DNA of 64,000 nucleotides from Natrialbaceae archaeon AArc-T1-2 (GTDB taxonomy: Archaea; Halobacteriota; Halobacteria; Halobacteriales; Natrialbaceae): the NCBI RefSeq assembly GCF_030273315.1, contig NZ_CP127174.1:992001-1056000 (forward strand). Direction: 5' to 3'. Positions 53,180-61,461 of this stretch are shown here, one piece after another (the first letter of the stretch is position 1; every line of letters begins with the position of its first letter). A model generated the notes under the pieces. That model was not told the DNA's origin, did not search any database, and was given only the letters and a program-made list of their open reading frames with translations. The position numbers and the translations under genes were made by a program.

Positions 53180-54901
53180 TCAGGGGTAGGGGTGAAACGC
53201 CCGCTCGAGTCGCGGTTCGAACCCGAGTTCCGGCGGCACGGTTCGTGCTCGTTCTCCGAAGTACGGCTCGTCGGTAAACAGCGGCTGTGCGCCCGGAACG
53301 ACGACCCGAACGGCCTCGAAACCGAGCCGGCTGACGTCACGGGTCGTAAGCCGCGTGGCGTACGGCGTTAGCCCGGCGGCGTCCGTTCTCTCGATCAGTT
53401 CCTCGAGCGCGTCACGACCCGTCGGGACGGTGTCGGGACCGACGGCGTCGGCGTCGATCGACCGCTCGACGTCGACGAACGACCGGGCGGGCTCGGGGAA
53501 CTCGGCGTACGCTCCGATCGCCGCGCCGGCGTCGGCGGCGTCGTCGGGACCGATCGAACGCAGCTCCATCCAGTTTTGCAGCGCCTCCGCGAGTGCGGAG
53601 CGGGCCGCGGCGGCGACATCGAGGTCGGCCGCGGAGCCGGCTGCAAACCGCGGCCACTCACCCTCCCGATGGACGGCGACGGCGACGACGGGGACGTCGA
53701 CGTCCTGTGTGACGAGAAGCGGCGTCACCGATAGCCCCTCGCTGCGGGCGCGTTTCGTGAGCGTCGTGACGCCCTCGTCGTCTGTCTCGAGCGCGAGCGG
53801 CTCGTACGTCGAGTACCACGCGAGCATCGTCGCGTCGCGTTCGAGGACCTCGGTCAGGCCCGATCGCAGGGCGTCGACCGTCGACGAGCCGAGGCCGAGC
53901 CCGGTCGTGATCGCGGGCACGAGCCCCTCGCCGGGCTGGGGGAACTGTACCGCGGCAGCAGGCACGTGCGTCGTCTCGCCGGTCGCGAGGTTTTCGCCGT
54001 CGACCCACCGATACTCCGCCGCGGGATCGAACTCGAGGGCGTTGTCCGGGCGGACCAGGTCGGTCGGGGAGACGACGGACGCGAGGTCGTCGGCGCTCGC
54101 GTGGACGAAGTCGTCCTCGCGATAGACGCCCGCACAGTAGCGCTCGAGGGCCTCGCCGACGGCTTTCATCAACGCGGCGTTCCAGTCGGCGTCGACGCCG
54201 GCGGCCTGGGTCGGCGCGCTCGCGTCGCTGAACCCCTCGGTCTCGGCGTTCGTCGCGAGGTAGTACGGAGCCGGGAACGACTCGAGTTCGCCGATGCTGC
54301 GGACGATGCCGACTCGGTCGTCGATGGCGGCTTCGGCGCGTTCGACTGCCGTCTCGAGGTCGACGTCGTCGTCGTCGCGCTCGAGGCTGCGGTCCCGGTC
54401 GGCGTCGTCACACGAACAGCCGGGGACGGACAGAACGCGTCGACGGGTGTGGGGGAGTTCGAGAACGTGGCCCACGATGGACGGCTCCTCGCCCGAGAAG
54501 AGCCGGACGCACTCTCTGCCCGCGATCGCTCCGGCCAGTCGGGCCGTGCTTCGGTCGGTACTCGGTTTCTCGGCGAGTGCTGTCGCGTTCGCACCGACGC
54601 GTGCGTCGAGACAGTCGAAACAGCCCGTCTTCGGGGCGAAGCCGGAGATGGCCGCGTCGACGTCGGCGAGTGGATGGCCGCCGACGCCGCCGATTTCGAC
54701 AGCGATCCACGGGGTGTTTCCTGCAAGCGCCGCGTCGTTCGCGCTCCGGATCGATTCCGCGCCGGCGACGTCGCTGACGACGGCAAAGCGGGCGTTTTCG
54801 ACGTCGGCCGGGTCAGCATCCCGGACCGTGACGTCGACGTCCGAGAGCGCGGCCACGACGGCCTCGCGAATCGGGTCTTCCGCGACGACGTGTACGTCCA
54901 T
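53180..54901 (-). CDS. YcaO protein with N-terminal Cys-rich E1-like domain (TOMM-type)
   Basis: A 573-residue protein. The N-terminal 170 residues have the pattern of an E1-like docking domain with Cys pairs GCFDCLDARVG and GCSCDD. The YcaO domain (about 190-573) begins at VGIVRSIGELESFPAPYYLA and has GVDADWNAALMKAVGEALER as its ATP-binding segment, and ends with FHPYP, a C-terminal motif reminiscent of the azoline-forming PxPxP type. YcaO enzymes activate peptide amides with ATP to make azolines or thioamides. No precursor peptide, leader or oxidase gene is obvious nearby. Function in haloarchaea is unknown. Confidence 0.85.
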   Translation of the reverse strand: MDVHVVAEDPIREAVVAALSDVDVTVRDADPADVENARFAVVSDVAGAESIRSANDAALAGNTPWIAVEIGGVGGHPLADVDAAISGFAPKTGCFDCLDARVGANATALAEKPSTDRSTARLAGAIAGRECVRLFSGEEPSIVGHVLELPHTRRRVLSVPGCSCDDADRDRSLERDDDDVDLETAVERAEAAIDDRVGIVRSIGELESFPAPYYLATNAETEGFSDASAPTQAAGVDADWNAALMKAVGEALERYCAGVYREDDFVHASADDLASVVSPTDLVRPDNALEFDPAAEYRWVDGENLATGETTHVPAAAVQFPQPGEGLVPAITTGLGLGSSTVDALRSGLTEVLERDATMLAWYSTYEPLALETDDEGVTTLTKRARSEGLSVTPLLVTQDVDVPVVAVAVHREGEWPRFAAGSAADLDVAAAARSALAEALQNWMELRSIGPDDAADAGAAIGAYAEFPEPARSFVDVERSIDADAVGPDTVPTGRDALEELIERTDAAGLTPYATRLTTRDVSRLGFEAVRVVVPGAQPLFTDEPYFGERARTVPPELGFEPRLERAFHPYP

Positions 54902-57153: not shown

Positions 57154-57372
57154 CTATCGATCGTCGGCGAGCGTCGCTTCGATCCTCGACAACCGTTCGA
57201 CGACGTTGTACAACATCCAGAGGACGACCACGAGGAGCAAGAGGATCGCAAGCGAGAGGACGTCGCCGGCCCAGATCGCATACAGGATCAGGAACGGAAG
57301 CAACAGTCCGCCGATCGCAACGGAGAGGAACACCCACGGCGAGTATATCCACGGCGAGTTCGTTCCGGTCAT
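57154..57372 (-). CDS. Two-helix small membrane protein (72 aa)
   Basis: Helices SVAIGGLLLPFLILYAIW and LLLLVVVLWMLYNVVERLS. ATG 57372 is 21 bases from a perfect 12-bp palindrome GAACAATTGTTC (57393-57404) which overlaps the expected TATA position. Function unknown. Confidence 0.6.
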   Translation of the reverse strand: MTGTNSPWIYSPWVFLSVAIGGLLLPFLILYAIWAGDVLSLAILLLLVVVLWMLYNVVERLSRIEATLADDR

Positions 57373-57536: not shown

Positions 57537-58751
57537 TCACATGACCCGATCCTGGAGATCCTCGTGGTGCTTGACGTTGTAGACGAGCGTGACCTCCTCG
57601 GTCGTCGGCGTCCCGACACAGGTGAGCCGGAATCCTTTCTCCTCGACTTCCTCGTCGCTCAGCTGCCGGTTCTCGTCCATCTCGAGGTCGCCCTCGAGGA
57701 CGGCGGCGGTACAGTCCACACAGCCGCCGACGCGACAGTAAAAGGGCCAGTCTTCTCCCTCGGCCTCGGCAGCATCGAGGACGTACTCGCCCTGTTCGAC
57801 CTCGAGGGTGCCGTAGGCGTCTTCCCCGAGGTCGGCCTCGGCGGCCTGCTCGAAGAGGTCCTCGTCCTCGAGCGACCAGCCCTGCTCTTCGAGCACCTGG
57901 TAGTCGAGGTACTCGACGGTCGTCGTCGGTCCTGGCTCCGGCCGGACGCCGGTCACGGGGACGGTGGCGAAGCGAACGACCCGCTCCGTGGTGCTCCCGA
58001 GCAGGTACCGGCCGAGACCGGTCCGACCGTGCGTGCCCATGACGATCGCGTCCACGTCGTGTTCGGTCGCGTACGCGAGGATCGCCTGGTGCGTTCGGCC
58101 GGGGACGACCGCGGTGTGGATCGTCTCCAGGTCGGTCCCCTGTGCTCGCTCGAGGACGTCGTCGATGGCGTCGGTTCCGATCTCCTCGCCGGGGGCGACC
58201 TCGACCGTCTCGCGCTCGCCGGCCAGCAGGGCGTCGGTCACGTGAACGACGTGTAGCGTCGCCCCCGCTTCCGTCGCGAGCTCGATCGCGTGATCGGTGG
58301 CTGCGGTTGCGCTGTCGCTGCCGTCGGTCGCGACCAGCACCCGCTCGAGGTCCGGTCTCGGGTCGGCTCCCTCGGTAACTGTCACCACCGGAAGCGGCGA
58401 CTCGCGCAGGAGTTCTTCGGCGACGCTGCCCAGCAGGAATCGATCCAGTCCGCTTCGACCCTGGGTTCCCATCACGATACAGTCGACGTCGTGATCGGTC
58501 GCGTACTCGATGACGGTCTCGGCGACGGACGCCTCCCGATCGAGAATCTCCGTCGTCGCGTCGACGCCGCGTTCGGTCGCGTGCTCGGCAACAGCGTCGA
58601 CCGCGCGCTCGGCGCGCTCGCGATCGTCGTCCTCGAGGACGGTGGCGACGGAGAGATCGGCACCGAAACGTCGTGCTAACTCGCATGCGTGCTCGCCTGC
58701 GCGCTCTGCGATCCGGCTTCCGTCCGTCGGAGCGAGAATCCTGTCGTACAT
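57537..58751 (-). CDS. Fusion of two universal stress protein domains and a [2Fe-2S] ferredoxin
   Basis: Predicted 404 residues from ATG 58751. Usp domain 1 (about 1-140) has [20 protein letters not shown]; Usp domain 2 (about 145-275) has [20 protein letters not shown], both with ATP loops. The last 127 residues from [20 protein letters not shown] to the end are a complete halophilic plant-type ferredoxin with iron ligands CRVGGCVDC and a further Cys in RLTCVG. Single ferredoxins of this type carry electrons for 2-oxoacid oxidoreductases in haloarchaea; fusion to a stress-sensing nucleotide-binding pair is unusual. Confidence 0.9.
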
Positions 58752-58954: not shown

Positions 58955-59203
58955 ATGAAGATCGAGCACCTCGCCCGCGACGACGGGCAGATGGCACGAC
59001 AGTACGACTACGGCGACGAGACGATCGTGGCCGTCGACTTCGGCGCGGTCGAGGCCGACGCGGCCGTCGACGTCGTCGACGACACCGTGATCGTCGTCTT
59101 CGAGGACGACCAGCGCGAGCTCGAGCTCCCGGCCGACGTCGGAGACGCGCAAGCGTTTATGAAAAACGGTGTCCTCACTATCGAGGTGGAGGGCGACGCA
59201 TGA
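58955..59203 (+). CDS. Hsp20-like small protein coupled to cdc48
   Basis: Eighty-two residues with an alpha-crystallin-like end: [20 protein letters not shown] then TIEVEG, as in small heat-shock proteins. It overlaps the Cdc48 start by ATGA, so the two are translated together. It may deliver substrates or be a regulator. Family membership is tentative. Confidence 0.62.
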
Positions 59204-61461
59204 AACTCACTGTCAAACCACTCAAACAGAAAGACGCAGGGCGTGGACTCGCAGCGATCGACCGCGCCTCGATGCGCAAACTCGACCTCGAGAACGGGGA
59301 TTACATCCTCATCTCCGGCAACGGCGACGGACAGGCGGTCGCACGCGTCTGGCCCGGCTATCCCGAGGACGAGGGCAACGGCGTCGTCCGAATCGACGGC
59401 CGGCTCCGACAGGAGGCGAACGTCGGGATCGACGACCGGGTCACCGTCGAGAAAGCAGACGTCAAGCCCGCCTCGTCGGTGACGGTCGCTTTGCCACAGA
59501 ACCTCCGGATCAAAGGCGACATCGGGCCGCTCGTGCGTGACAAGCTTTCCGGCCAGGCCGTCACCGAGGGACAGACGGTGCCGTTCTCGCTGTCCTTTGG
59601 CCCGATGAGCCGCTCCGGCCAGTCGGTGCCGCTGAAGATCGCGAGCACCTCTCCGTCGGGCACCGTCGTCATCACCGACTCGACGAGCATCGAGATCTCC
59701 GAGACGCCGGCCGAACAGATAAGCGAGGCCGCCGGCGAGACGCCCGAGGGCGTCCCGAACGTCACCTACGAGGACATCGGCGGCTTAGACGACGAACTCG
59801 ACCAGGTCCGGGAGATGATCGAACTCCCGATGCGCCACCCCGAGCTGTTCCAGCAACTCGGCATCGAGCCGCCGAAGGGCGTCTTGCTCCACGGTCCGCC
59901 GGGGACGGGCAAGACGCTGATGGCGAAAGCCGTCGCCAACGAGATCGACGCTCATTTCCAGACGATCTCCGGGCCGGAGATCATGTCGAAGTACTACGGC
60001 GAGTCCGAAGAGCAACTGCGCGAAGTCTTCGAGGAGGCAGAAGAGAACGCGCCCGCGATCGTCTTCATCGACGAACTCGACTCGATCGCCGCCAAACGCG
60101 AGGAAGCAGGCGGCGACGTCGAGCGCCGCGTCGTCGCACAGCTGCTCTCGCTGATGGACGGCTTAGAGGAACGGGGTCGGGTCACGGTCATCGCTGCGAC
60201 GAACCGGATCGACGACATCGACCCCGCACTCCGACGTGGCGGCCGTTTCGACCGTGAGATCGAAATCGGTGTCCCCGACAAGGACGGCCGCAAGGAGATC
60301 CTGCAGGTTCACACCCGCGGGATGCCCCTGTCCGACGCCGTCGACTTAGAGCAGTACGCCGAGAACACCCACGGCTTCGTCGGGGCCGACTTAGAGAGTC
60401 TCACTCGCGAGAGCGCAATGAACGCCCTGCGTCGCATTCGCCCCGACCTCGACTTAGAGAGCGAGGAGATCGACGCCGAAGTGCTCGAGTCGCTGCAGGT
60501 GACCGAACGGGACTTCAAGGAGGCGCTCAAGGGCATCCAGCCCTCCGCGATGCGGGAGGTCTTCGTCGAGGTGCCGGACGTCTCCTGGAACGACGTCGGC
60601 GGCCTCGAGGACACCAAAGAGCGTCTGCGCGAGACGATCCAGTGGCCACTCGACTATCCCGAAGTCTTCGAGCAGATGGACATGGAAGCCGCCAAGGGCG
60701 TGCTCATGTACGGCCCGCCCGGCACCGGCAAGACGCTGCTCGCGAAAGCCGTCGCCAACGAGGCCCAGTCGAACTTCATCTCGATCAAAGGCCCCGAACT
60801 GCTCAACAAGTACGTCGGCGAGTCCGAGAAGGGCGTCCGCGAGGTCTTCGAGAAGGCACGCTCGAACGCTCCGACCGTGATCTTCTTCGACGAGATCGAC
60901 TCGATCGCGGGCGAACGCGGACAGACGACCGGCGACTCCGGCGTCGGCGAACGCGTCGTCTCCCAGCTGTTGACGGAACTCGATGGGCTCGAGGAGCTCG
61001 AAGACGTCGTCGTCATCGCGACGACCAACCGGCCGGATCTGATCGACCAGGCCCTGCTCCGACCGGGCCGGCTCGACCGGCACGTCCACGTGCCCGTTCC
61101 CGACGAGGAGGGTCGCAAGAAGATCTTCGAGGTTCACACCCGCGAGAAACCACTCGCCGACGCGATCGATCTCGAGTGGCTCGCCGCCGAAACGGACGGC
61201 TACGTCGGCGCGGACATCGAAGCGGTCTGTCGCGAGGCATCGATGGAGGCCACTCGCGAGTTCATCGACTCGGTCGATCCCGAGGAGATCGACGAAAGCG
61301 TCGGCAACGTCCGCATCAGCAAAGAACACTTCGAGAACGCCTTAACGGAGATCGGCCCGAGCGTGACTCCCGAGACCCGCGAACGCTACGAGGAGATCGA
61401 AGAGGAGTTCCAGACTGCCGAACCCGAGACCGAAGACCAGCTCGGACGCACGTTCCAGTGA
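59200..61461 (+). CDS. cdc48: Cdc48/VAT-type AAA+ ATPase
   Basis: Predicted 753 residues from ATG 59200. N domain (about 1-185, double-psi barrel start [20 protein letters not shown]), then two AAA domains with Walker [21 protein letters not shown] and [20 protein letters not shown], and Walker [15 protein letters not shown] and [14 protein letters not shown]. It unfolds proteins for the proteasome. The C-terminal end lacks the eukaryotic HbYx motif. Confidence 0.96.

What the first reader, a model, noticed from the sequence alone, without database searches (positions are those of the whole stretch)
57537..58751. Double universal stress protein fused to a halophilic ferredoxin
All iron-binding cysteines of the ferredoxin and both nucleotide loops are intact. 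Such a fusion could couple ATP level or stress sensing to electron flow from 2-oxoacid oxidation. I know this ferredoxin mainly as a separate protein.
Basis: partly seen in the sequence, partly recalled or inferred. Interest (0 to 1): 0.7.

Follow-up and report, generated by a model that had tools for sequence, protein, structure and literature searches.

The report
Stress-protein–ferredoxin fusion with cytochrome partner
In some salt-loving archaea, apparently mostly from soda lakes, an iron-sulphur ferredoxin is fused to two stress-protein domains with intact nucleotide motifs, and its gene usually travels with that of a predicted haem membrane protein, so it likely feeds electrons, perhaps under ATP control, to a transmembrane reductase.

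Summary
The fusion is real: one 404-residue gene (57537-58751, minus strand) = USP + USP + complete halophilic [2Fe-2S] ferredoxin, with all four cysteines and both nucleotide motifs. It is no one-off: 88 listed protein clusters, the window's own included, have both domain types, the ferredoxin halves form one group, and 22 of 391 Halobacteria genomes carry it. Databases already annotate it; I found no paper on it.
Likely function: a ferredoxin dedicated to a transmembrane b-haem reductase, with the USPs as nucleotide-dependent control. Electron transfer, haem, ATP effect and acceptor are untested.

The parts
57537..58751 (-). CDS of the USP-USP-ferredoxin fusion, 404 aa
   Evidence: called as a gene by codon usage
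58368..58751 (-). USP domain 1 (residues 1-128)
   Evidence: one of two Pfam Usp stretches; AF2 model
58425..58469 (-). nucleotide motif of USP1, G95-x2-G98-x9-G108-S109 (with D10 at 58722-58724)
   Evidence: G95, G98, G108, S109 in 87 of 87 fusions; D10 in 86, 1 gap
57942..58346 (-). USP domain 2 (residues 136-270)
   Evidence: Pfam Usp best stretch 136-270
57993..58037 (-). nucleotide motif of USP2, G239-x2-G242-x9-G252-S253 (with D143 at 58323-58325)
   Evidence: the three G 87/87, S253 85/87, D143 87/87
57921..57941 (-). short linker (residues 271-277), of nearly fixed length in the family
   Evidence: stretch 266-280 is 14 or 15 residues in 87 of 87
57540..57920 (-). complete halophilic [2Fe-2S] ferredoxin domain (residues 278-404)
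   Evidence: NF041393 191 bits; PDB 1e0z/1doi by sequence; 1doi, TM 0.95 of target, by fold
57711..57737 (-). cluster loop CRVGGCVDC (C339, C344, C347)
57618..57620 (-). fourth cluster ligand C378
   Evidence: 87 of 87
57154..57372 (-). 72-aa hydrophobic ORF downstream; neighbour only, no family match above cut-off and no match in the other 32 loci
58955..61461 (+). divergent neighbours: DUF7127 gene (82 aa) and CDC48-type AAA ATPase (753 aa); neighbours only. DUF7127 has no match in the other 32 loci, CDC48 in one (L142, 58%)

Best explanation
This 404-residue protein is a halophilic [2Fe-2S] ferredoxin domain fused behind two universal stress domains, and it likely works as a cytosolic electron carrier, tuned by nucleotide binding, that feeds a predicted six-helix b-haem membrane reductase (c1) whose gene lies within 2 kb in 27 of 33 fusion loci. 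Inferred chain: an unknown reductase loads the ferredoxin domain; its very acidic surface would dock on the basic TM2-TM3 loop of c1; the electron would cross through the single predicted haem site (H88/H159) to an acceptor outside, with ferric iron my first guess because it is so insoluble in alkaline brine (recalled chemistry). The USP pair would bind ATP and, being joined by a spacer of nearly fixed length, would change access to the cluster. In the window's genome the partner c1 is encoded elsewhere and would act in trans. Shown: domain make-up, conservation, one ferredoxin group, co-occurrence and linkage with c1. Predicted: folds. Inferred: docking, direction of flow, gating, acceptor.
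Against: No interaction, haem, redox or ATP data. In the window's own genome the two genes are 1.5 Mb apart. 'Close form' of c1 was set at a gap in the scores seen afterwards (419 bits or more against 324 or less for the full-length matches); distant forms occur in 10 further genomes without the fusion. c1 scores below the curated cut-offs of Ferric_reduct (20.3 of 28) and MsrQ (24.4 of 130), and of the two c1 proteins first scanned one (L130) matched neither; a c1 profile found no relative among PDB sequences; Foldseek gave only one match at E<=0.001 (STEAP2, 4.9e-4). G344 has the fusion without c1. Loci also hold P-type ATPases, CPA2 antiporters, CLC and many USPs, and no iron-uptake gene was recognised among the neighbour proteins I scanned, which fits ion homeostasis at least as well as iron reduction. 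Part of the linkage may be inherited gene order.
Confidence: 0.5

Rival explanations
1. Redox or iron sensor: the [2Fe-2S] cluster reports cell redox state to the USP pair, which regulates ion transporters encoded nearby; c1 would set or read the cluster's redox state.
For: A P-type cation ATPase cluster occurs in 16 of 33 loci and CLC in 6 (identities); CPA2-type antiporter pairs lie beside c21 in G000 and near distant c1 in L187 and L190. USP domains fused to transporters are described for haloarchaea (PMC7601130, passages).
Against: USP genes are so many in these genomes that proximity is weak evidence; each transporter type occurs in fewer loci (16 and 6 of 33) than c1 (27 of 33).
Confidence: 0.2
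2. General ferredoxin for 2-oxoacid oxidoreductases with an ATP switch; c1 linkage is incidental.
For: The domain is a full halophilic ferredoxin, 56% identical to 1doi; free ferredoxins are known partners of these enzymes (recalled).
Against: Two free canonical copies are kept in the same genome; cluster surroundings differ from 58 of 58 free forms sampled; tight co-occurrence with c1.
Confidence: 0.12
3. c1 plus fusion is an MsrPQ-like methionine sulphoxide repair system fed by ferredoxin.
For: The best named profile for c1 is MsrQ (32 of 89 members at E<=0.01, best 1.4e-8).
Against: Below the MsrQ cut-off; no MsrP-like gene was recognised by eye among the neighbours read. MsrP was not searched for in any genome.
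Confidence: 0.08
4. The USPs are only a solubility or dimerisation tag; the protein is a plain ferredoxin.
For: The molecular mechanism of USPs is largely unknown (PMC7601130, passages).
Against: Both nucleotide motifs are kept across 87 fusions down to 46% identity; spacer length nearly fixed.
Confidence: 0.1

Closest known systems
Halophilic [2Fe-2S] ferredoxin (NF041393; PDB 1doi, 1e0z/1e10)
   Same: Full-length domain over model positions 2-127 of 128, four cluster cysteines, 56-57% identity
   Different: Fused to two USPs; V or I at loop position 7 in 87 of 87 where 58 of 58 free forms have A (CRAGACANC); separate side of a 100/100 branch
Tandem universal stress proteins (TTHA0350, 3ab8 with ATP; Rv2623, 3cis; 3loq)
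   Same: Two USP halves; same fold in the Foldseek list
   Different: These solved proteins are listed as universal stress proteins alone, 235-292 residues in the aligned chains, with no room for the extra ferredoxin
USP fusions of haloarchaea to amino-acid permease or Na+/H+ exchanger (review PMC7601130)
   Same: USP joined to an effector domain
   Different: The effector here is an electron carrier; the review's main text has no occurrence of 'ferredoxin' (passages; its domain figure is not held)
YedZ/MsrQ and STEAP branch of the ferric reductase domain superfamily
   Different: c1 has no dehydrogenase or flavin domain and is below the curated profile cut-offs; its linked redox protein is a ferredoxin. 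Fer2-bearing FRD proteins are known in bacteria (architecture M8 in PMC3591440, passages)
E. coli Fre/MsrQ (separate donor and FRD protein; PMC11031084)
   Same: Soluble donor plus FRD membrane protein as separate polypeptides (passages)
   Different: The donor there is a flavin reductase using NADPH, here a ferredoxin with USP domains

Membership tests
Halophilic [2Fe-2S] ferredoxin | Score above curated cut-off over the full model | tested here: met
   191.3 bits against 150, model 2-127 of 128
Halophilic [2Fe-2S] ferredoxin | C-x4-C-x2-C ... C cluster ligands | tested here: met
   C339, C344, C347, C378
Canonical free halophilic ferredoxin (FerA) | Groups with the free proteins in a tree | tested here: not met
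   87 fusions and 58 free forms fall on opposite sides of a 100/100 branch (unrooted, 127 columns, bootstrap not fully settled), so I call it a separate fused group of the same family
Halophilic [2Fe-2S] ferredoxin | Binds a [2Fe-2S] cluster and carries electrons | not testable with these tools
   needs protein
Universal stress protein (tandem, ATP-motif type) | Usp profile twice, above cut-off | tested here: met
   193 bits, two stretches
Universal stress protein (tandem, ATP-motif type) | G-x2-G-x9-G-(S/T) in both halves (motif recalled) | tested here: met
Universal stress protein (tandem, ATP-motif type) | Binds ATP | not testable with these tools
   needs protein
FRD superfamily, YedZ/STEAP branch (partner c1) | Six TM helices with His in TM3 and TM5 | tested here: met
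   by prediction; definition from PMC11031084 passages
FRD superfamily, YedZ/STEAP branch (partner c1) | First haem His of TM3 replaced by Arg, TM5 inner ligand by Gln | tested here: met
   R74 88/89 and Q145 87/89, each 14 residues before H88/H159 (signature from PMC3591440 passages)
FRD superfamily (Pfam Ferric_reduct) | Score above curated cut-off | tested here: not met
   20.3 of 28 bits for one c1, no match for the other; 11 of 89 members reach E<=0.01. I call c1 FRD-like and do not file it as a member by profile
MsrQ | Equivalog cut-off | tested here: not met
   24.4 and 23.2 bits against 130
FRD superfamily (partner c1) | Haem b binding, transmembrane electron transfer | not testable with these tools
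   needs membranes

The most novel reading that the evidence does not exclude
A stress-gated, ferredoxin-driven transmembrane reductase of soda-lake archaea: a USP pair senses ATP and switches a built-in ferredoxin that powers a STEAP-like b-haem protein, probably to reduce ferric iron or another outside acceptor at high pH. It would be an FRD-type system that runs on ferredoxin instead of NAD(P)H and flavin, and would give universal stress domains a defined biochemical job.
Probability: 0.3. Interest if true: 0.82.

Novelty: new variant of a known kind. Interest (0 to 1): 0.62.

Why it matters
What universal stress proteins do molecularly is largely open. Here nature has tied a USP pair to a measurable output, a redox cluster, and the gene partner gives that output a likely target. 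If right, ATP or stress state controls electron export across the membrane of haloalkaliphiles, and the FRD/STEAP fold has an archaeal branch fed by ferredoxin. The parts are small, separate and testable in vitro.

Tried and rejected
Gene-fusion artefact or frameshift: rejected (87 aligned relatives). Chance proximity of c1: rejected. Window neighbours as partners: eight neighbouring genes were compared with the other 32 loci; seven have no match and CDC48 has one, L142, which holds the nearest fusion relative among those loci. c21 as a universal partner: rejected; strong hits in only 4 of 391 genomes, all carriers, and three weaker hits in non-carriers that I did not follow. Alkaliphiles only: the 19 genomes with full-length hits named are, as far as I recall, all haloalkaliphiles or soda-lake MAGs, and passages of PMC9726719 give soda lakes for AArc-m2/3/4 and AArc-curdl1; the rest is recall. 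Against a strict rule: one database row is a partial 'Halovivax sp.' of unknown pH, and several alkaliphiles (recalled) appear with the free ferredoxin only, e.g. Halorubrum alkaliphilum and Natronobiforma cellulositropha. Sequence search of c1 against PDB gave nothing credible.

Rows dropped or capped: P0081 (664 aa, AAA-ATPase part and truncated USP1, metagenomic) left out of A1; one search lists 120 of 3378 hits; A4 holds 89 of the 120 listed c1 homologues (132 found); free ferredoxins are 56 of 59 named loci (L035, L064 and L071 gave no called gene) plus two of G000; 13 of 21 named fusion loci were dropped as duplicates of unnamed ones; of 12 distant c1 loci fetched, the two weakest (L194, L195; E about 1e-14) were read, show no ferredoxin label and are not among the ten counted. 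In one search four candidates per genome were scored, up to seven.

Literature: ten searches of an open-licence library. By the titles and abstract beginnings listed, no paper is about this fusion; one search found none with its three terms. Five papers were seen as passages only (PMC8238504, PMC6211008, PMC11031084, PMC3591440, PMC7601130), and PMC9726719 likewise; the others were seen as listings. Subscription papers are not covered.

Full report
OBSERVATION. The gene at 57537-58751 (minus strand) encodes 404 residues: two Usp domains and a complete halophilic [2Fe-2S] ferredoxin. The four cluster cysteines and both G-x2-G-x9-G-S motifs are intact. The finding is confirmed as written.

HOW COMMON. 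A search of 5.8 billion proteins gave 3378 hits, of which 120 are listed; 88 of these (P0002-P0089, the window's own among them) have both domain types. Named ones include Natronomonas pharaonis and Natrialba magadii, where annotators already wrote 'ferredoxin (2Fe-2S) / UspA domain protein'. In a sample of 391 Halobacteria genomes the scores are bimodal: 25 full-length copies (610-661 bits) in 22 genomes, then double USPs without ferredoxin (340 bits and less) (only four candidates per genome were scored). By my count of that table 21 of 101 genomes of the window's family carry it, and one genome outside the family. In the plasmid collection 2 of 37 records with a match hold the whole fusion (Natronococcus occultus, Natrialba magadii).

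CONSERVATION. In 87 aligned fusions the ferredoxin part is the most conserved (mean share of the majority residue 0.75, against 0.67 and 0.65 for the USPs). The stretch from USP2 to the ferredoxin has 14 or 15 residues in all 87. In a tree of 145 ferredoxin domains the 87 fusions and 58 free forms fall on two sides of one branch (100/100). One origin fits; the tree is unrooted, has few columns and its bootstrap had not settled. All 58 free forms read CRAGACANC, while loop position 7 of the fusions is V (59) or I (28). Sixteen ferredoxin positions separate the groups, several of them near the cluster ligands in sequence (338, 343, 345). So the fused ferredoxin likely presents a different contact surface.

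STRUCTURE. AlphaFold2 on the 87-row alignment gave pLDDT 88.2 and pTM 0.81, with low confidence in parts of the two nucleotide loops (101-105, 244-249). Foldseek matched the ferredoxin to 1doi (TM 0.95 of the target) and the rest to tandem USPs, best 3ab8, solved with ATP.

PARTNER. I read the surroundings of 33 dereplicated fusion loci (25 unnamed, 8 named). A membrane protein of 213-216 residues, c1, lies within 2 kb in 27 (one a broken copy), and c21, a 70-79-residue protein with two predicted helices' worth of hydrophobic sequence and two invariant His, in 4 others. Neither is near the fusion in the window's genome or in L028 (an 11.4-kb contig). Of the 27, 16 have c1 downstream on the same strand (9 of them 74-76 bases away), 9 divergent upstream, 2 otherwise; the eight fusions whose ORF is 390-396 residues are all of the divergent kind. 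In the 391 genomes the close form of c1 (419 bits or more) is found in 21, all of them fusion carriers; one carrier (G344) lacks c1 and has c21 beside the fusion. Distant full-length forms (324 bits or less) occur in further genomes without the fusion; 10 of the 31 genomes with any match are of that kind. Fisher P = 7e-34, and 2e-9 if genomes are shuffled only within mixed genera. In G000 c1 sits at C1:2559155-2559790 and c21 at C1:487014-487223, both away from the fusion.

UNFUSED PARALLELS. Ten more distant c1 loci were read. Six hold a lipobox [2Fe-2S] ferredoxin in the same stretch. In three, all of one genus, it is about 10-50 bases from c1. In the other three it is the divergent neighbour of a double USP (125-221 bases) and lies about 1.4, 4.7 and 9.8 kb from c1. 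In four of the ten no such ferredoxin was found (two of these stretches are short or near a contig end). USP pair, ferredoxin and c1-like protein thus recur together as separate genes in some genomes; USPs are numerous in these genomes, so the USP part alone is weak.

MECHANISM. Inferred: the fusion carries electrons to c1, which passes them outward; the USP pair adds nucleotide control. FRD proteins move electrons from the cytosol outwards (PMC11031084, passages). The acceptor is unknown. Ferric iron is my guess from habitat chemistry and STEAP likeness; the neighbouring cation ATPases, antiporters and CLC favour ion homeostasis instead.

KNOWN OR NEW. A review of haloarchaeal stress proteins names USP fusions to permease and Na+/H+ exchanger and has no 'ferredoxin' in its main text (PMC7601130, passages; its figure is not held). 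Ten searches of the open library listed no paper on the fusion. Fer2-bearing FRD proteins exist in bacteria, so a ferredoxin with this fold has a precedent; the USP part and the archaeal c1 pairing are what is new. Verdict: new variant of a known kind.

Noticed in passing
G000:C1:480000-495000 (L151:7015-7227): In the window's genome the c21 gene lies directly before a pair of CPA2-type antiporter genes and not beside the fusion.
   Followed up: partly
L184, L185, L189, L186, L187, L190: Ferredoxins with an Arg-Arg and lipobox-like start (by eye) beside distant c1 homologues or double USPs: a possible second, outward-facing ferredoxin-cytochrome module.
   Followed up: partly
L005:1456-1950 (G000): The window's genome has its own 164-aa lipobox-type ferredoxin, not beside c1 or the fusion.
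   Followed up: no
L132 (G364 C2): A second fusion copy whose adjacent c1 matches in two separate pieces, while the other fusion-c1 pair of that genome (L123) is intact.
   Followed up: partly
P0081, P0090: Metagenomic oddities: P0081 joins an AAA ATPase to a truncated fusion; P0090 looks like a fusion whose ferredoxin is read out of frame.
   Followed up: no
L010, L012 and others: A P-type cation ATPase (best models Ca-type, below their cut-offs) lies near the fusion in 16 of 33 loci, CLC in 6.
   Followed up: partly
53180-54901: 573-aa YcaO cyclodehydratase-family protein (Pfam YcaO, 178.5 bits, cut-off 25.7).
   Followed up: partly
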